NCBI RefSeq assembly: GCF_029395675.1
Contig: NZ_CP115184.1
Span: forward strand, 2,542,001-2,606,000
DNA length: 64,000 bases
From: Janibacter cremeus
Lineage (GTDB): Bacteria > Actinomycetota > Actinomycetes > Actinomycetales > Dermatophilaceae
Reading direction: 5' to 3'
The translations under genes were made by a program, and so were the position numbers. Position 1 is the first letter of the stretch, and each line of letters starts with the position of its first letter. The notes beneath the pieces are model-generated. The model had not been told where the DNA came from. It worked only from the letters and a program-made list of their open reading frames with translations, and searched no databases. Below are positions 25,115 to 41,510 of the stretch, piece after piece.

Positions 25115-25324
25115 TCACTTGTCCAGGATCTCGTTGACCGCCTCGGTGACGGCGCCCTGAACGTCCGCACCGTCGATGACCGTGATGACGGCACCGACGA
25201 TGATGGCGGCGACGATGAGCATGCCCACGTACTCGAGGGCGCTCGCACCGCGCTCCTGCTCTGCCAGGCGCTGGGTGAGGGTGTGCTTGGCGACGGTGAA
25301 CTTGGCGGCGGCCTTGTACGTCAT
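25115..25324 (-). CDS. flp: Flp-type major pilin
   Basis: 69-residue prepilin. A 26-residue basic leader ends ERG; cleavage between Gly26 and Ala27 leaves ASALEYVGMLIVAAIIVGAV, with Glu31 at +5 and the Glu-Tyr pair of Flp pilins, then a short polar C-terminus. GGGAGT lies before the ATG at 25324. Monocistronic between its own promoter and terminator, as expected for the major subunit. Confidence 0.95.
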   Translation of the reverse strand: MTYKAAAKFTVAKHTLTQRLAEQERGASALEYVGMLIVAAIIVGAVITVIDGADVQGAVTEAVNEILDK

Positions 25325-25402
25325 GGTGATACTCCCTGGATCAGTCCGTGTGGTTCCCGGGGCCCCCTGAGCGGGGAACCTTCGTCCCTGTTGACAGAGA
25401 AG

Positions 25403-25482
25403 ACATTACGGTCGACCGGCTCTCGCCCGCAGGGTCCTCGGGCCCGTCCTCGGGCCCAAGATCACTGTGGGCCCACGGGCCC
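25403..25482 (-). promoter_or_regulatory. flp promoter with GGGCCC-box array (element A)
   Basis: Reading the minus strand: GGGCCC (25477-25482), 2 nt, GGGCCC (25469-25474), 11 nt, GGGCCC (25452-25457), 6 nt, GGGCCC (25440-25445), 2 nt, GGACCC (25432-25437), 23 nt, then -10 TAATGT (25403-25408). No -35 hexamer is present. The proximal three boxes match elements B (37044) and C (41226) in sequence, spacer lengths and distance to the -10. The array fills the gap right after the response-regulator stop. Confidence 0.8.
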
Positions 25483-25484
25483 AG

Positions 25485-26147
25485 TCAATGGCGCAACCAG
25501 AGCACGATCGCCTCGGCCCGCGTGACCACCCCGAGCTCGGCGAAGATCGCGTTGATGTGGTTCTTGACGGTCTTCTCCGCCAGGAACAGCTCTCGGGCGA
25601 TCTGCTGGTTCGTTCGTCCCTGCGCCACCAGATCCATGACCTCCACCTGGCGCGGACTGAGCGTCGTCGTCTGGGCACCAACCCGTGTCACCGTCTGCGA
25701 GGAGACCTGCGTGGCGGCGTCGTCCCGGTCATCGCTGTCCCCCCGCAGCGCCGTGAGAGCCGGCCCCGAGAAGGCGCCGGCACCCGCTGCACACTGCCGG
25801 ATCATCGATGCCAGGAACTGGGCGTCGAACGTCCCGTGAACGAGGTATCCGCTCGCTCCTCGACGGAGCACCTCCTGGATGACGTGAGCTTCGTCGGTGA
25901 AGGTCATCATGATCACCGTGGCCGTCGCCGACAGCTCGGTCGTGACGGAGACGCCGTCACGCTTGGGCATCCGCACGTCGAGCAGGACCACGTCGGGCTC
26001 GGCCTCGGCCGCAAGTGCCAGTGCCTCGTCGCCGTCGGCTGCCTCGGCGACGACCTCGAGATCATCCTCCGTAGACAACAACGCCTTAAGCCCCATGCGC
26101 ACCACCGGACTGTCATCGACGATCAGGATTCGCAACCTCGTGCTCAC
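25485..26147 (-). CDS. NarL/LuxR-family response regulator of the tad locus
   Basis: 220 aa. Receiver domain with acidic pair DD at residues 11-12, phospho-acceptor Asp57 in VVLLDVRMPKRDG, and a LuxR-type helix-turn-helix near residues 155-215 (LSPRQVEVMDLVAQGRTNQQIARELFLAEKTVKNH). GTG 26147 overlaps the kinase stop (GTGA). Last gene of the tad operon, adjacent to the GGGCCC array of the flp promoter, so it is the first candidate for the protein that binds there. Confidence 0.93.
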   Translation of the reverse strand: MSTRLRILIVDDSPVVRMGLKALLSTEDDLEVVAEAADGDEALALAAEAEPDVVLLDVRMPKRDGVSVTTELSATATVIMMTFTDEAHVIQEVLRRGASGYLVHGTFDAQFLASMIRQCAAGAGAFSGPALTALRGDSDDRDDAATQVSSQTVTRVGAQTTTLSPRQVEVMDLVAQGRTNQQIARELFLAEKTVKNHINAIFAELGVVTRAEAIVLWLRH

Positions 26148-27319
26148 CGCTCGATCAGCCCTTCCCTGTGGACGCTCAACGTGACGGTCGTGCCCCGGCC
26201 GGGCACGGAGACGACGTCGGCCAGGCCGCCGATACGAGCCATTCGTTCCCGGATGCCGACGACCCCGTGATGACCGGCCAACGCGGCCTCGGTCAGTGCG
26301 TGGGCAGACATGCCGACACCGTCGTCGCTGACCTTCAGGACCAGTCGATCCGTGCTCGGACACTCCAGGGCCACCACGACCCGGCACGGCCCTGCATGGT
26401 GACGCACATTGTCCAGCGCCTCGGTGAGGCTGTGCACCAGCTCGTACCGCACGGCATCGTCTTCCGTGTCGAGGTCCTGACGCACCGCAAGCTCGACGGT
26501 TCGTCCGCTGGTTGCCTGCCAGGCCATGGCTGCTTCCGCGACTGCCGAGGACAGTGTCTGGTCCGACGAGCGCTCCCGCAGCGAGGACATGATCTGACGG
26601 AGCTGGTGCACTGCCTGGGTCGTCATCGCCTGCAGCTGTGACGCGTGCTCACGCGCACCCGTGGGGTCCCGCTCCATCAGGGTGGGCAGGGCCGCGCTCG
26701 TCATGACGATCCCCTGCAGGGACTTCGCCATCGAGTCGTGGATCTCCCGCGCAATCGCCGTTCGCTCGCTCGACGCCGCGGCGTTGGCAATGGCATCCCG
26801 GACGACGGCCTGTGCCCGACGCTCTCCCTCGACGGCCGTGGCGATGACCAGACCCAGCAACCACAGGATGATGAAGACGAAGGGGAGGATGGCCGTGACC
26901 GTGAAACTTCCCTGGTCGACGGGGGTGGTGGCCTGCAGGCCGAGGAGGTAGACCGCCAGCAGGCACACGATGACGATTCCGCCCGCGACGCGGTCGATCC
27001 ACAGGCCGAGCAGGAGGGCGGTCGGCAGCAAGACGAGGACGAGCGGGGAGTCGACGCCGGCGAACCCGACCGCGACCGCCATGAGCACCAGGTCGGCCAG
27101 GGCCAGGGCCGGGTGACGACTGACGAGGGACAGGTACTCGGGACGAGCAAGCCCGAGGTACGAGGTCAGTCCGGCGGCCACGACGCCGACGAGGATCGCC
27201 GGCGTCAGCTCCCGGCCCATGATCAGGACCAACGTGGCCAAGAGCCCGACCAGACGGACGACGAAGGCCGTCTGGGTGACGGACACCAGCAGCCGGGGCA
27301 CCCCGTGGACATCAGCCAC
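26144..27319 (-). CDS. Membrane sensor histidine kinase (HisKA_3 type)
   Basis: 391 aa. The N-terminal half holds five to six membrane helices with no large sensory loop; then HisKA_3 with the phospho-His in TAIAREIHDSMAKSLQGIV, and a HATPase domain with DNVRHHAGPC and VSDDGVGMS. I chose GTG 27319 (8-bp overlap with tadC); a longer ATG-free frame extends to 27358. Cognate partner of the overlapping NarL-type regulator. The signal sensed is unknown and may come from the membrane or the pilus machine. Confidence 0.9.
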   Translation of the reverse strand: MADVHGVPRLLVSVTQTAFVVRLVGLLATLVLIMGRELTPAILVGVVAAGLTSYLGLARPEYLSLVSRHPALALADLVLMAVAVGFAGVDSPLVLVLLPTALLLGLWIDRVAGGIVIVCLLAVYLLGLQATTPVDQGSFTVTAILPFVFIILWLLGLVIATAVEGERRAQAVVRDAIANAAASSERTAIAREIHDSMAKSLQGIVMTSAALPTLMERDPTGAREHASQLQAMTTQAVHQLRQIMSSLRERSSDQTLSSAVAEAAMAWQATSGRTVELAVRQDLDTEDDAVRYELVHSLTEALDNVRHHAGPCRVVVALECPSTDRLVLKVSDDGVGMSAHALTEAALAGHHGVVGIRERMARIGGLADVVSVPGRGTTVTLSVHREGLIER

Positions 27320-28223
27320 CGAGCAACGACCCCAACTGGTCACCACCGACTGCCACATACATACCGCCGACGATGAGGATGATCGTTGCCGGCACCATGA
27401 CGGTCGTGACCACCATGGTCACCCGTGGCTCGATTCGGGCGGCGAGCTGGCGCATGCGCTGGGCCGCTGCCTTGCGCATCTCTGCCGCGATCTGGTTGAG
27501 CGTGTCCACCAGAGGCGCGCCGAGCTCCTCTGATTGCAGGTAGGCGGTGACGAACTCGTCCATCGCCGCAGAATCGGTCCGCTGCCGCATGGAGGTGAAG
27601 GCCGATCGCACAGTGGCCCCGTTGTTGATCTGGTGCAGAACCGTCGTGATCTCGTCACCGATCGGGCCTTCGAATCGGTGGGCGACTGTCCCCAACGCCG
27701 AACGGAAGCCCACGCCCGCACTGACCGTGACGGCGAGGACGTCGAGGAAGTCCGGCAGGTCCCGATCGATCTGCTCCCGTCGTTTGCGCGCCATCCCGGA
27801 GAGCCTGGACAGCGGGAGGACGATGACCGCGGCAATCGCCAGGATGACCTGCACGACGTTGGCCTGGAGGACCGCGATGACCACCACGGGCGTGAGGATG
27901 ATCATCCACCGGGCCGAGTTCGACAGGATCGAGTCGACACTCATCCCGTTGGGGCGTCCGGCGACGTCCACCTGCCGCTGCAGCCACCTGATCACCTTGG
28001 GTGGCAACCATGCTCGCATCTTCGACCCAAGGGCCGACGCGACGCGCTGGAAGGCGCTCTCGCCCTCTCCCCGCTTGCGCTCCTCGCCCCTGAGGAGGAC
28101 GAGGTCCTCGGCGAGCAGGTGCTCAGAGGGGTCCGACCGCAGCAGGTGGTACCCGCGGAAGACCAGCACCACGACGAGGAGGGCGACGAGTCCGGGGATG
28201 GCACCGACGAGAAAGCTCATCAT
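27312..28223 (-). CDS. tadC: TadC-like pilus assembly membrane protein
   Basis: 303 aa with a T2SSF/GspF domain: hydrophobic N-terminus, paired helices in the middle, RDLPDFLDVLAVTVSAGVGFRSAL, and a C-terminal helix ATIILIVGGMYVAVG. Inner-membrane platform that works with TadB and the CpaF ATPase to assemble or retract Flp fibres. ATG 28223 overlaps the tadB stop. Confidence 0.92.
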   Translation of the reverse strand: MMSFLVGAIPGLVALLVVVLVFRGYHLLRSDPSEHLLAEDLVLLRGEERKRGEGESAFQRVASALGSKMRAWLPPKVIRWLQRQVDVAGRPNGMSVDSILSNSARWMIILTPVVVIAVLQANVVQVILAIAAVIVLPLSRLSGMARKRREQIDRDLPDFLDVLAVTVSAGVGFRSALGTVAHRFEGPIGDEITTVLHQINNGATVRSAFTSMRQRTDSAAMDEFVTAYLQSEELGAPLVDTLNQIAAEMRKAAAQRMRQLAARIEPRVTMVVTTVMVPATIILIVGGMYVAVGGDQLGSLLGG

Positions 28224-33234: not shown

Positions 33235-34016
33235 GCGGTCTCCTGGGATTCATGGTCGAGCCGGACGCGACAGAAGGGGCAGACGTGGCCACCCACCGTG
33301 AGCGCGCATACGGGGCAGGTGTGGGTGGGCAAGGCGTCATCGCGCCCGAGACGGGCGTACTCGACGCCGCTGGCCCCGTACCGGGCAGCAGTCGAGCCCA
33401 CCGGGGGCAAGGTGCTCGACTGCGCGCCGAAGACCTCGGAGAGCACCGCCGTGGCCATCGCGTCCTCCGTCTCCTCGCTGACGAGGTGGCCGTCGTGCGG
33501 GACGAGCGCATCCGCGGCCCCGGCCGCGGAGACGACCATGCGATCCGGACTCATCGTCGCGACGTACCCACGGCCTCCCGGCAGCATCGAGCGAAGGTGC
33601 TGGCTGAACCTCGGCTGGGGGGAGCGCAGCCGGTGGACCCGTCGGAGCCAGACACCCGAGTCCGTCGTCGCGAGCATCGACTGGAGCTGGGCGACGACCC
33701 CGGGAGAGTCGGGGCGGCTCTCCAGGGCGGTCATCCCGCACGCTCCCAACGCCAGCAGCGAGACCTCGCGCTCGAGCACGCAGAAGGCGATGTCCGGGTG
33801 CTGTCCGGCGGCGATGGTCGTCTGCAACCTGGCCTGCGAGCGCGTCTCCGGCCGGGTCAGCACGACGACGTGCGTCGTCGACGTGCCCTCGACCCAGTGC
33901 GTGAGCGCGACGGGGTCGTGGGCGGAGACGACGATGAGCGGCAGATCCCCGCGCACCCAGGTGCGCACGGTCACCTCGGACTGCGTCCCGTCGACCACGG
34001 CGACCGCAAGCCGCAT
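33231..34016 (-). CDS. Unassigned protein with C-terminal zinc ribbon, first gene of tad operon
   Basis: 261 aa, no signal peptide. Starts MRLAVAVVDGTQSEVTV at ATG 34016, with GGGGG 6 nt upstream. The body is alpha/beta with VVVLTRPETRSQARLQTTI and gives no family I recognise; the C-terminus is a CxxC-x7-CxxC zinc ribbon (CPVC and CPFC). Overlaps cpaB by 4 bp and heads a nine-gene coupled operon, so a regulatory or assembly role in the Tad machine is likely. Confidence 0.75.
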   Translation of the reverse strand: MRLAVAVVDGTQSEVTVRTWVRGDLPLIVVSAHDPVALTHWVEGTSTTHVVVLTRPETRSQARLQTTIAAGQHPDIAFCVLEREVSLLALGACGMTALESRPDSPGVVAQLQSMLATTDSGVWLRRVHRLRSPQPRFSQHLRSMLPGGRGYVATMSPDRMVVSAAGAADALVPHDGHLVSEETEDAMATAVLSEVFGAQSSTLPPVGSTAARYGASGVEYARLGRDDALPTHTCPVCALTVGGHVCPFCRVRLDHESQETA

Positions 34017-34080
34017 ACAGCGCCCCCTGACACTCCGGATGGTCCATCTGACGCCTGCTCGTCGTACGGAACCGTTCGAA

Positions 34081-34108
34081 ATAGTAGAGGATGTGCGGAA
34101 TCTGACAA
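34081..34108 (-). promoter_or_regulatory. Promoter of the tad assembly operon
   Basis: Minus strand: -35 TTGTCA (34103-34108), 16-nt spacer, -10 TACTAT (34081-34086), about 65 bp upstream of the ATG at 34016. A conventional sigma-70-type promoter, without GGGCCC boxes. Confidence 0.65.
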
Positions 34109-34129
34109 CTCGAGGGGGAACTTTCGACC

Positions 34130-34693
34130 ATGGCGAGGAGACGACGGGCCACCCGTCGGCGTACCAGCTTGGATCGAGCACACCGGACGGCCGTCGTCGT
34201 CAGCACGACGCTCTTCCTGGCAGCCCTGGTGGCCATCGGCGTCGGGTCCTACGCCTGGCAGCTGGACCGCAACCCACCGACCCGGGTGACCCCCGACTCC
34301 GCGGTCCGGATCGGCTCGACCCCGCTCTTCGACCCCGGCGTCACGCTCTTCGTCCACGAGAGCACGGTCGACGACACCACGCCGGCACGGTGGGGTTGCG
34401 CGTTGTCGACGTCGGACGGACGGCGACCGCTGGACACTCCCGGTGACATCGAGCGCACGGGCACGCGGGTGCAGGAAGGTCAAGCACTCGTGCCCGCCCT
34501 GCGCATCGGCAGGACGACCGACACCGATCGCCTCTCCTGCTCGGACCTGCCTGCGGAGTCCGTGGTCTGGTCGTTGCCGACCGAGGCGGGATACCCGCGG
34601 ATCCCGATGGCGCTCGTCGTCGGGGGCGTCGCGCTGGCAGGTGCCGGTGCACTCATCCATCCCCGCTCCCGGGGGTTGGGCCGCTTTGCCTGA
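34130..34693 (+). CDS. Small membrane protein, family member 1 of 3
   Basis: 187 aa: basic N-terminus, membrane helix (residues ~22-43), an extracytoplasmic domain with two cysteines (WGCALS and LSCSDL), and a second helix near the C-terminus. The block running from GCALS through QALVPALRIG to RLSCSDLPAE aligns with similar blocks in the proteins at 34763 and 38084, so these are paralogues. GAGGGGG precedes ATG 34130. Divergent from the tad operon. Function unknown. Confidence 0.75.
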   Translation: MARRRRATRRRTSLDRAHRTAVVVSTTLFLAALVAIGVGSYAWQLDRNPPTRVTPDSAVRIGSTPLFDPGVTLFVHESTVDDTTPARWGCALSTSDGRRPLDTPGDIERTGTRVQEGQALVPALRIGRTTDTDRLSCSDLPAESVVWSLPTEAGYPRIPMALVVGGVALAGAGALIHPRSRGLGRFA

Positions 34694-35195: not shown

Positions 35196-36275
35196 TCACG
35201 GGAATGCCGGCTGCCTGATCTGCTCCTCGACGAGGTCGGCCAGGGCGTCGTGGCCCTGGGCGTTGGGGTGGAAACTGCCGGGGTCGACCAGCGACAGGCC
35301 GGGTCCGCCCCAGTTCAGGTCGTTGATCCAGGGATCGTCGGAGCCGATCCCGTGCCCGCGGAAGGCCGCCGTCGGGTCGATGAACTCCACCCCCGCCTCA
35401 CGCGCAGCCGACCGCAACATGTCGTTGAGCTCACCCGCCTGCTCGTTCATCCACGCCTGGTCCTCGGCGAAGAGCAGGTTGCCGAGGCTGTCCCGGGGGT
35501 TCTGCCCGAAGAGCTCCGGGTAACCGACGATGACGACCCGGGCGTCGGGGGCCCGCTCCTGGATCTCGTCATAGGTGTCCACGAGTTCGCCGTGCAGCGT
35601 CTCCAGACGCTCCTCGATCCGGTCCGCGTGCTTGTCACGGCACGAGTCGAGTATGGGGATCCCGCTCTCCCCGTTGATGATGCAGTCCGCGACGACCGTG
35701 CCGAAGCCGAGGTCGTTGCCGCCGATGGACAACGTGACGAGGGAGACGTCGTCGTCGAGCTCGTCCAGCTGCGGGTCCTCGTGGTCGTTGGAGGCGTTGG
35801 AGTCGGTGAGGTCGCCCTGCGTGGCACCGGAGCACGCGGCGAAGGTGGACCCCCCGTGGAAGGTGATGCCCGTCCCCCCGCGCTGGATCACCTCGGCATA
35901 GGCGTTTCCCGAACGGTGGCACCGATTGCGCTCGTCATCTCCCCAGTTGTCCCGGTCCCACTCGTCACCGTGGTCGTAGTCGGTGTCCGGGTCGTAGTCG
36001 CCGGCACCCTCACCAGAGGCATAGCTGTCACCCAGGGCCACGTACTCCCCCCACGTGGCCCGCTCCAGCGGGGTGGCCGTCGAATCATCGGGAGGGCAGC
36101 TGTCCCGGTCGAGGACCTGGCACACGGCACTGCCCACGACCGTCGGCAGCTGGGCGCTGCTGAGTGTCACGATGACTCCCGCGACGAGAATCGCCGTGAC
36201 GATCGTCAGGCCGACCCGCTCGAGGGCGGCGGCCCCCTGCTCCGCCGCCCTCGAGCGGTACCCCCGCGACCGCAC
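35196..36275 (-). CDS. SGNH/GDSL hydrolase with prepilin-like N-terminus
   Basis: 359 aa. Residues 1-40: basic leader, EQG|AAALERVG with predicted cleavage after Gly14 and Glu19 at +5, then a hydrophobic helix. Cys-containing spacer (AVCQVLDRDSC), then an SGNH esterase domain: nucleophile Ser84 in LGDSYASGEG, GGND (185-188), and the C-terminal FHPNAQGH His336. A strongly acidic insert spans ~92-116. GTG 36275 begins 2 nt after the lipoprotein stop. The N-terminal module matches that of the protein at 39729. Probably a minor pilin displaying an esterase. Confidence 0.88.
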   Translation of the reverse strand: MRSRGYRSRAAEQGAAALERVGLTIVTAILVAGVIVTLSSAQLPTVVGSAVCQVLDRDSCPPDDSTATPLERATWGEYVALGDSYASGEGAGDYDPDTDYDHGDEWDRDNWGDDERNRCHRSGNAYAEVIQRGGTGITFHGGSTFAACSGATQGDLTDSNASNDHEDPQLDELDDDVSLVTLSIGGNDLGFGTVVADCIINGESGIPILDSCRDKHADRIEERLETLHGELVDTYDEIQERAPDARVVIVGYPELFGQNPRDSLGNLLFAEDQAWMNEQAGELNDMLRSAAREAGVEFIDPTAAFRGHGIGSDDPWINDLNWGGPGLSLVDPGSFHPNAQGHDALADLVEEQIRQPAFP

Positions 36276-36277
36276 GA

Positions 36278-36964
36278 TCAGTCCGTCCGGTCGAAGGCCC
36301 CGACGGCGTCCTCGAGGACCTGCGGGTCGGGGTGGTCCTTGAGCGCGTACGAGGTGTAGGCGACCAGGGCATGGTCGTCGCTCAGGAGGACCATGTCGGT
36401 GGTCGGGCCGGCTCCCGTGGTCGCCGTCTGGCGCCAGGCCACGGCGTTGGCCGGCAGCCCCGCGACCTCCAGGGGCTCGACGTCGAAGCGCACGGTCGGA
36501 CTGTCCGTCTTGTTGCCCTTGGTCTCGTATGACGAGCATCCGGGAAGGGATGCCTTGAGGTCGCGGACCACCGCCGCCGGCGTCGTGGAATCCGAGTGGA
36601 TGCGCACGTGCTGGGCGAGGAAGGGGCCCAGACCCCCCTGCGAGTACCGGATGGCGCCACCATCGACCGGCTTCTGCGGCTCGATGTCGACACCGCAGAC
36701 GAGCTGCTTGAAGCCGGGGCCGGGTGGGTCACTGTCCCGCCACGTTCCGGGGAGGTCGTCGGCGGAGACAAACCGGTCGGCGACCGGTCGCGCGTCCGGA
36801 CCGGTCGGCGCCGCGGACGTCTGGGCCGTCCGCGCGGTCGACTCCCGAGCCGGCTCGTCCCCGCAGCCGCTCAGGCCGAGCACCAGTGCACCCACCGCCA
36901 CCGCGGCAGCGCGACGCACTGCGGGCACCGCCCGTGGTGTCCTACTTGTGGCTCGACCGCCCAT
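36278..36964 (-). CDS. Lipoprotein upstream of the SGNH pilin
   Basis: 228 aa. Arg-rich n-region, hydrophobic core and lipobox LSGC with Cys34, then a Thr/Ala/Pro linker and a globular domain with two further cysteines (LVCGVD, LPGCSSYE). The start ATG 36964 follows GAAGGAGAAC. Expressed from the GGGCCC-array promoter at 37015-37094 and coupled to the SGNH gene. No family recognised; substrate or pilus tethering at the membrane is possible. Confidence 0.8.
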   Translation of the reverse strand: MGGRATSRTPRAVPAVRRAAAVAVGALVLGLSGCGDEPARESTARTAQTSAAPTGPDARPVADRFVSADDLPGTWRDSDPPGPGFKQLVCGVDIEPQKPVDGGAIRYSQGGLGPFLAQHVRIHSDSTTPAAVVRDLKASLPGCSSYETKGNKTDSPTVRFDVEPLEVAGLPANAVAWRQTATTGAGPTTDMVLLSDDHALVAYTSYALKDHPDPQVLEDAVGAFDRTD

Positions 36965-37014: not shown

Positions 37015-37094
37015 AAGGTAGAAGGATGCGAACCGCGCGGACAGGGGCCACGGGCCCGGTTGTGGGCCCGCCTGCTGGTGGGGCCAGGGACCCA
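37015..37094 (-). promoter_or_regulatory. Lipoprotein-SGNH promoter with GGGCCC-box array (element B)
   Basis: Minus strand: GGGCCC (37064-37069), 6 nt, GGGCCC (37052-37057), 2 nt, GGCCCC (37044-37049), 23 nt, -10 TACCTT (37015-37020), no -35. Spacers and the 23-nt distance are identical to element A. At the same 11-nt offset as in element A there are degenerate distal boxes (GGGCCA 37081, GGACCC 37088). Confidence 0.78.
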
Positions 37095-38647: not shown

Positions 38648-39106
38648 CTACCGCAGTCCGGAGGTGTCGATGCGCTCGTCGGCGATCGCCGGCCGGGACC
38701 GGACCGTGACGACCACGACGACCATCCACACCAAGGCATCCACCACCCATGCGAGGGTGCCCTCCCACCCGAATGCGGTGGCGATCAGCGCCTTGCCGCT
38801 CCACGCGGCCGGCAGGAGGACGTACGCGACCAGCCCGGCGACGAGCCACAGGGTCCGCGGGCCGCCGCGCGACCAGCGGTACCCCGTGGTGAGCACCAGG
38901 GCCACCGTGCCGAGGACGAGGACGGTGCGCACCACGGCACCGACGGGGACGCTCAGGGCCATGATGCCGATGATCGACCCGACGACGCCGAAGATGGTGG
39001 CGGCGGCCACGAGGACCAAGCAGGTCAGGACGGCGCCAACCATTCGCCTGGTCGTCCAAGTGTGTGTCGTCGGCGACGGATGGAGATCATGGACCACGCG
39101 CGTCAC
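38648..39106 (-). CDS. Four-helix membrane protein of the tad locus
   Basis: 152 aa, four hydrophobic segments (first MVGAVLTCLVLVAAATIFGV), short polar ends. GTG 39106 overlaps the lipoprotein stop (GTGA). No family recognised. Confidence 0.68.
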   Translation of the reverse strand: MTRVVHDLHPSPTTHTWTTRRMVGAVLTCLVLVAAATIFGVVGSIIGIMALSVPVGAVVRTVLVLGTVALVLTTGYRWSRGGPRTLWLVAGLVAYVLLPAAWSGKALIATAFGWEGTLAWVVDALVWMVVVVVTVRSRPAIADERIDTSGLR

Positions 39107-39729
39107 GCCCCCTTGAAGGTCGCGAGGATCGTCGGAAGCTCGCTCTCCTCGAAGGTGTCCGCGTCACCGATGGCCACGACGTTGAGGATGAGGTTCGAGT
39201 CGATCTGGGCCATCAGCTGCCACGTCTCGCGGCGCTGGCCTCCTGCACCGCCGACAGGATTCGTCCACTGGACGAGGACGGCCTTCTCGGCGCCGGGCCA
39301 GGTGACCTCGGAGCGCTTCACCTCGTCCTCGTTGTTGACCGACTGCATCTCCTCCAGGACGAAGGACTGCTGGATGACGTCCTGCTTCGGCTTCACGTCC
39401 CGCAGGACCGCCACCCGTTGCAGCGAGGTGTCCCCGTCATCCGCCCGTGGCGCGTCGAAGACGTAGGCCTTCGTACCGTTGTCCGCCGTGACGATCTCCT
39501 CCTCGAAGGAGCCGGGGACACCGATGGTGAAGTCCGGCCCCTCGACGGTGCGCCACTGCGAGGACACGGCAGTCGGCGTGACCGACGGCGTCGGCGTCCC
39601 GGTGGGCTGCATCTCAGACTGTGAGGGGTTCACACTCTCCTCCTCCGGCTCGTCCGAGGACGAGCACGCAGCCATGACCACCACCAGGGCCGTGGTCACG
39701 GCCACGATGGAGCGATGGCGGGCGGACAT
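39103..39729 (-). CDS. Lipoprotein of the tad locus (PsbP/DUF1795-like fold suspected)
   Basis: 208 aa. Lipobox MAAC with Cys22, Ser/Pro/Thr-rich linker to ~residue 55, then a compact domain with EGPDFTIGVPGSFEEEI and TWQLMAQIDSNLILNVVAIGDADTFEE. This order recalls PsbP-like proteins, which are also encoded at 43413 in similar form; the assignment is tentative. ATG overlaps the upstream stop by one base. Confidence 0.75.
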   Translation of the reverse strand: MSARHRSIVAVTTALVVVMAACSSSDEPEEESVNPSQSEMQPTGTPTPSVTPTAVSSQWRTVEGPDFTIGVPGSFEEEIVTADNGTKAYVFDAPRADDGDTSLQRVAVLRDVKPKQDVIQQSFVLEEMQSVNNEDEVKRSEVTWPGAEKAVLVQWTNPVGGAGGQRRETWQLMAQIDSNLILNVVAIGDADTFEESELPTILATFKGA

Positions 39730-41138
39730 CAGTCACCCCCCGCGGCCGTGGCGCCGCTGCAACTCGTCCATTCGGACATCTGCGATCCGTCCCAGTATTG
39801 CGCATCGGTCAGGTCGACGGTCTGGGTCGACACATCCACCGCACCTGCCAGCGCGATGGGCCCGGCCTTGCCACCGCCGTTGCCGGCCAGCGGAGTCGAG
39901 CCGGCCATATCGTAGCCCTGCTGGGTCAGGCTGCCGGTCTGTCGGACCCGGTTGAAGTAGTTCAGGTCGACGGGGACCGTGGCCGGCAGCGCGACCGCTG
40001 CGGTGGCGCCACCGACGGACTTGACGCCCTGGCTGGCGAGGAAGGACCAGCCAGCCACCTGGTTGTCCTCGGAGTCCATGGGCAGCGAGGTCTGGAAGAC
40101 CGTCGAACGGCCGGCCGACGTGTCGATGTCCTTGCCCTCGTACTCCCCGGTGAAGGCCGCAGCGGCCACGCCGCTCCCTTCACCGGAGGCAGTGACCGTG
40201 GCATCGACGGAGCTCACCTGACCATCGGGATCCACCGTCACTGCTGTGACCATCTTCATGGAGCCGTCGACGTCACCGCCCTTGAAGTCAACCCCCTCGG
40301 TGTCCACCCCGAGGGTGTTCAGCCCGGCCTCCCCACTGACCTCGGACGACAGGTAGAACGTTTTCGAGCCATCCTTGGACTGCCGGTATCCGAGGGCCTG
40401 GGCGGCACTCACTCCGGCGTTGGCCGTGCCGATACTGGCCACCTGGGCCGACGCGTTGACCGAGAACCCGCCTTCGTAGAACGTCTCGTCCGCTTCCGGA
40501 AGGGGCTTGGTCAGTCCGGTTCCCTCGGTCACCTTGTCGGTCAGCCAGCGCACGGGCCCGGACTCGGCCACCAGCTCGTCCTTGGCGACGTCGGCGATGT
40601 GGGCCTCCACCACATCGCGCATCTCGGCCTCGTCCTCGGCGTGGTAGACCTCACCCTCGGTGATGGACAAACCAGCGCCCACGTCAGCCGATGCCTGGTT
40701 GCCGACCGTGCGGTCGGCGACGGTCAATGACATGCCACCGCCCACGCCGAGTTCGACGCCGGCACCCTCGCCCTTGCTGAAGGTCAGCTTGTAGGTCCCG
40801 TCGCTGAGCTGCTCGATCTGGAACTGTCGCCCGTTCTCCAGGGTGACCACCGAGATGGAGACCTGACCGTGGACGTTGCCGGAGGACCCGGTCACGGTGC
40901 AGGGTTCCGTCGGCTCGGGTCGCTTCGCGGTGTCGTCCCCACCGGAGGATCCACACCCGCCCTGCCCCAGGTTGAGGATGGTGCACACGGCCTGGCGAGC
41001 GCTCTCCGCGACAGGGGTGCGCTGGGTCAGCACCACCACGAGCGCTCCCACGAGCATCGCGGAGACGACGATGATTCCCACCCGTTCGAGACTGACCGCA
41101 CCTCGCTCGCGGTGGTTTCGCGTCCACCCCCGGCTCAT
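39729..41138 (-). CDS. Large exported protein with prepilin-like N-terminus
   Basis: 469 aa. Leader ERG|AVSLERVG, predicted cleavage after Gly13 with Glu18 at +5, then a helix and a Cys-containing spacer (AVCTILNLGQGGC) that parallels the SGNH protein at 35196. The remaining ~400 residues are Gly/Ala/Thr/Val-rich, with alternating polar-hydrophobic pattern suggesting extended beta structure, and no family I know. ATG 41138 has AGGGGGA upstream. Heads the unit containing the prepilin peptidase, under element C. Confidence 0.8.
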   Translation of the reverse strand: MSRGWTRNHRERGAVSLERVGIIVVSAMLVGALVVVLTQRTPVAESARQAVCTILNLGQGGCGSSGGDDTAKRPEPTEPCTVTGSSGNVHGQVSISVVTLENGRQFQIEQLSDGTYKLTFSKGEGAGVELGVGGGMSLTVADRTVGNQASADVGAGLSITEGEVYHAEDEAEMRDVVEAHIADVAKDELVAESGPVRWLTDKVTEGTGLTKPLPEADETFYEGGFSVNASAQVASIGTANAGVSAAQALGYRQSKDGSKTFYLSSEVSGEAGLNTLGVDTEGVDFKGGDVDGSMKMVTAVTVDPDGQVSSVDATVTASGEGSGVAAAAFTGEYEGKDIDTSAGRSTVFQTSLPMDSEDNQVAGWSFLASQGVKSVGGATAAVALPATVPVDLNYFNRVRQTGSLTQQGYDMAGSTPLAGNGGGKAGPIALAGAVDVSTQTVDLTDAQYWDGSQMSEWTSCSGATAAGGD

Positions 41139-41195: not shown

Positions 41196-41251
41196 ATGTA
41201 ACCATCACGTCAGTGCCCGCGTCTTGGGCCCTCGGGCCCGGATCAGGGCCC
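41196..41251 (-). promoter_or_regulatory. Promoter of the 39729 operon with GGGCCC-box array (element C)
   Basis: Minus strand: GGGCCC (41246-41251), 6 nt, GGGCCC (41234-41239), 2 nt, GGGCCC (41226-41231), then 24 nt to a -10-like TTACAT (41196-41201). No -35. Same spacers as elements A and B; the -10 is weaker and one base further away. It also lies 28 bp upstream of the -10 of the divergent biotinyl-type gene. Confidence 0.75.
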
Positions 41252-41291: not shown

Positions 41292-41510
41292 ATGGGTCAC
41301 AGGATCGAGTCCGAGCTCGTCGCGAACGTCATCTCCGTGCACGTCACCGAGGGGCAGACGGTTGCCGCCGGTGACGAGCTGGTGCTCCTGGAGTCGATGA
41401 AGATGGAGATCCCCGTCCTCACCGAGGGCCCCGGTCGGATCGCCGAGGTCAAGGTCACCGCCGGCGACGTCGTCCAGGAGGGCGAGGTCCTCGTCGTCAT
41501 CGACGACTGA
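41292..41510 (+). CDS. Biotin/lipoyl attachment-domain protein
   Basis: 72 aa, a single biotinyl-like domain with the acceptor lysine in LLESMKMEIPV (the MKM motif of biotin carriers). Small stand-alone carriers of this kind serve acyl-CoA carboxylases in actinobacteria; no carboxylase subunit is nearby, so the partner is unknown. Confidence 0.9.
   Translation: MGHRIESELVANVISVHVTEGQTVAAGDELVLLESMKMEIPVLTEGPGRIAEVKVTAGDVVQEGEVLVVIDD

What the first reader, a model, noticed from the sequence alone, without database searches (positions are those of the whole stretch)
25403..25482. A GGGCCC-box array with fixed geometry controls the Flp pilin and two other tad units
Upstream of flp, GGGCCC hexamers are arranged box-6 nt-box-2 nt-box, then 23 nt to a -10 (TAATGT) with no -35. 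The same three-box arrangement, the same spacers and the same 23-24 nt distance occur before the two other non-assembly units of this locus (37015-37094 and 41196-41251), and as far as I see nowhere else in the window. Five boxes are present here, including a distal pair. Such fixed geometry over unrelated flanking sequence implies a bound activator replacing the -35. The NarL-type regulator encoded immediately beside this array (25485-26147) is the simplest candidate. I know of no described regulon with this motif.
Basis: partly seen in the sequence, partly recalled or inferred. Interest (0 to 1): 0.88.

Follow-up and report, generated by a model that had tools for sequence, protein, structure and literature searches.

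The report
Response-regulator operator driving Tad pilin-type genes
In Janibacter and a number of related actinobacteria a fixed cluster of GGGCCC half-sites sits in front of the genes for the Flp pilin and for larger proteins that begin like a pilin, and most likely lets a regulator encoded next door switch on what a surface pilus is made of, separately from the pilus machine.

Summary
GGGCCC-N6-GGGCCC-N2-GGNCCC occurs three times in the 3.5-Mb genome at up to 1 mismatch, all in this tad locus. Orthologues of the adjacent NarL-type regulator occur in 18 of 186 family genomes. The array plus a -10 at 23 nt (up to 1 mismatch) occurs in 15 of those 18 and in 3 of 168 others; exact matches in 13 of 18 and 0 of 168. 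Arrays also lie beside flp in Nocardioides gilvus and Propioniciclava flava.

Column analysis re-parses it. Box4 and box5 form one inverted repeat, GGGYCYnnRGRCCC, matching the published OsdR/DevR-type site, centred near -42.5. Box3 is an extra direct half-site. The distal pair is a second dimer site at helically phased spacings.

Of 33 sites in regulator-positive family genomes, 15 precede flp and 18 precede units with a larger pilin-like protein, often fused to a GDSL hydrolase. The assembly operon has a -35/-10 promoter and no boxes. The regulator family has His or Tyr for the conserved receiver Lys.

Best reading: a dedicated two-component regulon for Tad pilin-type substrates, a new variant of a known kind. 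Binding and activation are not shown.

The parts
25477..25482 (-). box1, left half of the distal dimer site
   Evidence: conserved in 4 of 4 Janibacter genomes with the locus, with N11 to box3
25469..25474 (-). box2, right half of the distal dimer site
25452..25457 (-). box3, extra left-type half-site (TTGGGCCC)
25440..25445 (-). box4, left half of the proximal dimer site
25432..25437 (-). box5 (GGACCC), right half of the proximal dimer site, about -41 to -36
25403..25408 (-). -10 element TAATGT of flp, 23 nt from box5
25115..25324 (-). flp, Flp-type pilin (69 aa, ERGASALEYVGM prepilin motif)
   Evidence: Pfam gives only a sub-threshold DUF4244 match
25485..26147 (-). NarL-type response regulator; receiver Lys replaced by His; recognition helix EKTVKNHIN
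26144..27358 (-). membrane histidine kinase (HisKA_3, HATPase_c)
37064..37069 (-). unit 2 box3
37052..37057 (-). unit 2 box4
37044..37049 (-). unit 2 box5 (GGCCCC)
37080..37093 (-). unit 2 distal site GGGTCC-ct-GGCCCC, 10 nt from box3
37015..37020 (-). unit 2 -10 element TACCTT
36278..36964 (-). unit 2 first gene, lipoprotein (228 aa)
   Evidence: lipoprotein-like by eye
35196..36275 (-). unit 2 second gene, pilin-like N-terminus fused to a GDSL/SGNH hydrolase
41226..41251 (-). unit 3 array (box3, box4, box5)
41196..41201 (-). unit 3 weak -10 element TTACAT at 24 nt
39729..41138 (-). unit 3 first gene, pilin-like N-terminus with a beta-rich remainder in a low-confidence model (469 aa)
39103..39729 (-). 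unit 3 second gene, lipoprotein-like (208 aa)
   Evidence: by eye
34081..34108 (-). promoter-like site of the assembly operon, TTGTCA-16-TACTAT, without boxes (contrast)

Best explanation
The array is the operator of a dedicated two-component system encoded in the same tad locus (kinase 26144-27358, regulator 25485-26147). A regulator dimer binds GGGYCYnnRGRCCC (box4 plus box5), centred near -42.5 where a -35 would lie, and recruits RNA polymerase to a promoter with only a -10. A second dimer on the phased distal site and a further subunit at half-site box3 strengthen this cooperatively. The targets are the Tad substrates: the Flp pilin and larger proteins with a pilin-like N-terminus (GDSL hydrolase, large domain). 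The assembly machine, with kinase and regulator at the end of its gene run, is made from an ordinary -35/-10 promoter, so machine and substrate are controlled apart. Shown by sequence: architecture, conservation, co-occurrence, the nature of the targets, contrast with the assembly promoter. Inferred: that this regulator is the binder, that it activates, box3's role, cooperativity, that the pilin-like proteins are exported by the Tad machine. The signal is unknown.
For: Near-exact pattern only in this locus genome-wide. Regulator and array co-occur: 15 of 18 against 3 of 168 genomes, Fisher p 1.3e-16; exact matches 13 of 18 against 0 of 168. Reversed-pattern control hits 3 of 186 genomes. 30 of 38 orthologue-flanking regions score 15 or more of 18 box letters and 24 of 38 beat the best of their 60 shuffles, against 0 of 26 for paralogue loci. 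Boxes conserved, spacers much less. C-to-T changes fall in box3 and box4, G-to-A in box5: the mirror symmetry of an inverted repeat. -10 at 23 nt in 18 and at 24 nt in 2 of 25 arrays. Distal sites at 9-11 or 19-22 nt in 15 of 16 cases. Match to the OsdR consensus; FLAEKTVKN shared letter for letter with DosR. Pilin-type units behind 33 of 33 sites of regulator-positive family genomes (one search finds the motif in 32; the other, in G172, is seen). Tad-type ATPase loci without this regulator (G000's others; G008, G011) bring no array hits.
Against: No binding or expression data. Co-occurrence cannot separate the regulator from its kinase or from this whole type of tad locus: within the genus the closely related TadA occurs in the same four genomes. 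Beyond the family the strict pattern catches few regulator-positive genomes: of the order sample, 6 of 20 at up to 1 mismatch (5 exact, 3 of these from the own family), against 9 and 0 of 376 others; several arrays there have N5 spacers or a degenerate box5, and 5 of the 25 analysed lack TANNNT. 8 of 38 orthologue loci score below 15; Kribbia shows none beside the regulator, one locus ends at a contig edge, and for L152 and L154 the best-scoring placement is not the one before the -10. G122 has an array before a lipoprotein and pilin-GDSL unit, but no regulator in the 14 kb read. In regulator-positive G211 one site precedes a membrane protein with no pilin motif.
Confidence: 0.8

Rival explanations
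1. Same operator, other binder: a DevR/OsdR-like regulator encoded elsewhere binds the sites, and the tad-encoded regulator has another job.
For: The dimer site equals the OsdR consensus core, the shared helix type is not unique to one regulator, and G122 has an array unit with no orthologue found.
Against: Exact array hits are confined to genomes with the tad-encoded regulator in both samples; array and regulator gene are neighbours in most of the 38 loci read, across several families.
Confidence: 0.1
2. The boxes bind a repressor, or act both ways; overlap with the -35 position blocks polymerase until the signal comes.
For: Position over -35 is compatible with repression; no expression data.
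Confidence: 0.07
3. The self-complementary boxes act in RNA or at the operon end (terminator or processing signal after the regulator gene).
For: At flp the array directly follows the regulator's stop codon; GGGCCC repeats can pair.
Against: The unit 3 array lies between divergent genes (39729-41138 minus, 41292-41510 plus), so no operon ends there; other arrays stand before pilin-type genes away from the regulator, with fixed spacing to the -10.
Confidence: 0.02
4. Chance cluster of GC-rich palindromes in a 70% GC genome.
For: At up to 3 mismatches the window has no more hits than shuffles.
Against: About 0.12 exact hits expected and 3 found, all in one locus; conservation in relatives.
Confidence: 0.01

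Closest known systems
PprA-PprB two-component system of Pseudomonas aeruginosa (PMC3510237, PMC6821963; passages seen)
   Same: Two-component genes inside the flp-tad locus; positive control of flp.
   Different: PprB also raises the assembly genes plus cupE and bapA; the PprB site named in a plasmid list is GGCTAATAC, not GGGCCC; here the assembly operon has no boxes.
DevR/DosR of Mycobacterium tuberculosis and OsdR of Streptomyces coelicolor (PMC5069765, PMC3029386; passages seen)
   Same: NarL-type regulator, with FLAEKTVKN in DosR; GGGCC-N4-GGCCC palindrome for OsdR; DevR's start-proximal site overlaps -35, with cooperative binding to a second site.
   Different: Dormancy regulon, not pili; no extra half-site at N6 is mentioned in the passages seen; their receiver Lys was not examined here.
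Tad/Flp (type IVc) pilus loci
   Same: TadA, TadB/C, TadE, TadZ-like, RcpC/CpaB and Flp genes present.
   Different: Pilin-like N-termini fused to a GDSL hydrolase or large domain under the pilin's kind of operator; one literature search (listing only) showed no report.
Tad gene cluster of Micrococcus luteus (PMC8467076; passages seen)
   Same: Actinobacterial tad genes with a DNA-binding protein and a sensor kinase close by.
   Different: The DNA-binding protein there is an HTH_17 protein; no pilin operator appears in the passages seen.

Membership tests
NarL/FixJ response regulators | Receiver domain plus GerE (LuxR-type) helix-turn-helix | tested here: met
   Pfam 83.5 and 65 bits
NarL/FixJ response regulators | Conserved receiver Asp, Thr and Lys | tested here: not met
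   Asp kept in 38 of 38 loci and Thr in 37 (Ser in L155); Lys is His (31) or Tyr (7) in 38 of 38, and His in 118 of 120 homologues (2 not matched by the script); Lys in the 16 of 26 paralogue rows that aligned as receivers. Still NarL-type by domains and helix, but atypical.
DevR/OsdR-type operator | 14-bp GGGCC-N4-GGCCC-like palindrome | tested here: met
DevR/OsdR-type regulon | Control of dormancy or stress genes | tested here: not met
   The array sites found stand before pilin-type units; single dimer sites genome-wide and transcription were not tested
PprB-type tad regulators | Two-component genes within the tad locus | tested here: met
PprB-type tad regulators | Co-control of assembly genes | tested here: not met
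   The one promoter-like site found in 33900-34300 is TTGTCA-16-TACTAT, and no array hit lies there; judged by sequence only
PprB-type tad regulators | Direct binding to the flp promoter | not testable with these tools
   needs a gel shift or footprint
Class II activated promoter | Activator site overlapping -35 at fixed distance from -10 | tested here: met
   23 nt in 18 and 24 nt in 2 of 25 arrays, none in 5; start sites inferred, not mapped

The most novel reading that the evidence does not exclude
Many actinobacteria carry a dedicated 'pilin-class' regulon: an atypical NarL-type regulator (His or Tyr for the receiver Lys, so perhaps not switched by ordinary phosphorylation) reads a multi-dimer GGGYCYnnRGRCCC operator in front of Flp and of a set of pilin-fused enzymes and large proteins that the Tad machine assembles or displays. 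Pilus composition would then be a separately switched programme.
Probability: 0.5. Interest if true: 0.78.

Novelty: new variant of a known kind. Interest (0 to 1): 0.66.

Why it matters
I found no described operator for Tad pilins in Gram-positive bacteria (searches; open-licence PMC papers only, mostly judged from listings). This gives a concrete, testable site, a candidate regulator and a target list across several families. The operator also works as a discovery tool: it pointed to pilin-fused GDSL hydrolases and large pilin-fused proteins as likely Tad substrates; the named homologues of the unit 3 protein are annotated only as hypothetical or uncharacterized. The His/Tyr-for-Lys receiver raises the question of how the switch is thrown.

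Tried and rejected
Pattern at up to 3 mismatches: background level. Strict pattern at up to 1 mismatch across the order: 10 of 22 sites lie in 9 regulator-negative genomes, near the control's 13 of 396 genomes, so there I rely on exact hits and on reading the loci. Structure of the unit 3 protein: mean pLDDT 55.9; the PDB search gave no match at E 0.001 or better, so no claim on its fold beyond an N-terminal helix and a beta-rich remainder. Paralogue control: my open-frame choice took a kinase or other frame in about 10 of 26 loci, so it is a control of neighbourhoods rather than of aligned regulators. The column analysis used 25 of 38 loci, chosen by hand; near-duplicates (L109, L112) and loci with no, degenerate, two-box or otherwise unclear arrays were left out (L104, L110, L147-L150, L152, L154, L155, L159, L161). 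The flp hits of the matrix scan are therefore partly circular; the non-flp arrays were not in the training set. The final motif check took 36 of the 37 sites (the second, identical G042 site was not given apart); its filter missed one pilin-like protein (G172, contig C88) that one search shows. RNA or terminator role and chance were considered and rejected (see rivals).

Full report
WHAT IS THERE. On the minus strand the tad locus runs RcpC/CpaB, TadZ-like, TadE, TadA, two TadB/C-type proteins, histidine kinase, NarL-type regulator, the array, flp, and a TadE/G-like protein. The flp array is box1-N2-box2-N11-box3-N6-box4-N2-box5-N23-TAATGT; units 2 and 3 repeat box3-N6-box4-N2-box5 with 23 and 24 nt to the -10.

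IS IT MORE THAN CHANCE. At up to 1 mismatch the pattern has three hits in the 3,495,359-base genome, all exact and all here; the reversed pattern has two. About 0.12 exact hits are expected from composition. At up to 3 mismatches the window is at shuffle level, so the signal is in the near-exact form.

CONSERVATION AND CO-OCCURRENCE. Orthologues of the regulator (E at most 1e-48) occur in 18 of 186 family genomes. A broadened pattern with TANNNT at exactly 23 nt, at up to 1 mismatch, occurs in 18 of 186, of which 15 have the regulator; reversed control 3 of 186. Exact hits: 13 of 18 regulator-positive and 0 of 168 others. Misses: G132 and G139, whose arrays have an N5 spacer, and G100 (Kribbia), with no array beside the regulator. 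Pattern without regulator: G042 (one sequence twice; the copy read lies before an ABC transporter gene), G193 (before a tRNA-Gly gene) and G122 (before a lipoprotein and pilin-GDSL unit). In an order sample of 396 genomes, exact hits fall in 5 genomes (3 of them of the own family), all among the 20 regulator-positive ones (E at most 1e-46); at up to 1 mismatch, 6 of 20 against 9 of 376, reversed control 13 of 396. Beside the regulator itself, 30 of 38 orthologue loci, including Propioniciclava flava and Nocardioides gilvus, score at least 15 of 18 box letters and 24 of 38 (P. flava among them, N. gilvus not) beat their best of 60 shuffles; 0 of 26 paralogue neighbourhoods do either. Within the genus the closely related TadA (79% or more) occurs in the same four of 16 genomes as the regulator. 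The own genome has further tad-type ATPases at 57%, 51% and 39%, and G008 and G011 have ones at 53-58%, without array hits. So the array tracks this regulator and locus type, not tad genes in general.

WHAT THE BOXES ARE. In 25 hand-picked flp arrays, box3 and box4 read (T)T-GGG[C/T]C[C/T]: substitutions are mostly C to T at box positions 4 and 6. Box5 shows the mirror image: G to A is the commonest change at positions 1 and 3, CCC is invariant, and T(G) mostly follows. Thus box4 and box5 form an inverted repeat GGGYCYnnRGRCCC, and box3 is a direct copy of the left half. The published OsdR consensus AGGGCCGATCGGCCCT has the same GGGCC-N4-GGCCC core (PMC5069765, passages). The regulator's FLAEKTVKN is identical to that of DosR in the alignment; which DosR residues touch DNA I recall only. 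The upstream pair is a second copy of the dimer site. Among 29 arrays, 16 have one at 10 of 12 or better: 15 lie 9-11 or 19-22 nt from box3 (one of them tied between 11 and 19), and one (L163) at 25 with its next best at 11. The two classes differ by about one helical turn. Several of the 16 are from close relatives and not independent.

PROMOTER GEOMETRY. TANNNT lies at 23 nt (18) or 24 nt (2) in 20 of 25 arrays; five lack it. In five pilin-fused genes an ATG follows 6-7 nt after the -10 (L120, L126, L142, L145, L146), which suggests leaderless transcripts and puts the start there. The proximal dimer is then centred near -42.5 to -43.5. The assembly operon instead has TTGTCA-16-TACTAT at 34108-34081 and no boxes.

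WHAT IT CONTROLS. One search lists 37 sites. All 33 in regulator-positive genomes precede a pilin-type unit: 15 flp genes and 18 units with a larger pilin-like protein. One search finds the motif downstream of 32 of the 33, within 160 nt of the -10 in 28 and at 757-775 nt, behind a lipoprotein gene, in 4; its filter missed the 33rd (G172, contig C88), whose pilin-like start is seen. Of the four sites in other genomes, G122 has the motif at 861 nt behind a lipoprotein gene; G193 and the G042 copy tested have none. The large proteins carry an E-Y/W/R/K/Q/F-type (once D-Y) prepilin-like motif and one hydrophobic stretch, then a GDSL hydrolase or a large domain. The window's unit 2 (lipoprotein plus pilin-GDSL) and unit 3 (469-aa protein) are of this kind. 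A matrix scan of 523 kb gave 41 hits (one place counted twice, in overlapping loci) against 0 in shuffled sequence; its 16 distinct arrays not beside the regulator all precede such units (one is a second flp; G122 included), though several of those loci had been fetched because of pattern hits and two pairs are counterparts in sister genomes. The order sample adds five sites in regulator-positive genomes (two flp, two pilin-fused, one membrane protein without motif) and ten in others: in nine my script found no such gene in frames starting within 300 nt, and one (G332) has a pilin-like segment about 500 nt downstream. That the proteins are Tad substrates is inference.

THE REGULATOR. All 38 aligned orthologues keep the receiver Asp and carry His (31) or Tyr (7) where the 16 alignable paralogues have Lys. 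Among the 120 best database homologues, 118 have His and 2 were not matched by the script. PprB of Pseudomonas still drives flp when its receiver Asp is changed (D60A, overexpressed; PMC6821963, passages), so phosphorylation may not be the switch here either; this is speculation. The kinase has several hydrophobic segments and HisKA_3; its signal is unknown.

COMPARISON AND NOVELTY. It works like PprAB on flp and uses a DevR/OsdR-type site. It differs from both in the multi-half-site layout (not seen in the passages read), in targets limited so far to pilin-type units, and, as far as tested, in the altered receiver. My searches found no description, but they cover open-licence PMC papers only.

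VERDICT. Confirmed as sequence, strongly supported as a conserved operator, with the adjacent regulator as its likely but untested binder. New variant of a known kind.

Noticed in passing
window 25485-26147: The regulator subfamily carries His or Tyr in place of the receiver's conserved Lys in all 38 loci aligned; meaning for phosphorylation unknown.
   Followed up: partly
window 35196-36275 and 39729-41138: Proteins with a pilin-like N-terminus fused to a GDSL hydrolase or to a large domain; possible Tad-displayed enzymes or adhesins.
   Followed up: partly
flp leaders, about 7 nt after the -10 (window 25396-25389): A TGTCAGCA-like stretch is conserved at the inferred transcription start of many flp genes, but was not seen by eye at units 2 and 3; unexplained.
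   Followed up: no
window about 25340-25385: Possible hairpin GGTTCCC...GGGAACC in the flp leader, with similar pairing in G014 (by eye).
   Followed up: no
G000 contig C1 2187607-2188695 and 2196675-2197802: Two further tad-type ATPases (57% and 51% identity) in the own genome, about 8 kb apart, without array hits; a third at 39% lies at 1984970-1985923.
   Followed up: no
L195 (G122): Array, lipoprotein and pilin-GDSL unit without the regulator in the 14 kb read, next to a contig end.
   Followed up: partly
L206 (G211): Strong three-box array, about 15 kb from the regulator, before a membrane protein without a pilin motif.
   Followed up: no
L151, upstream of the array: Tandem copies of a TTGGGCTGCTGG-like unit directly before the array.
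   Followed up: no
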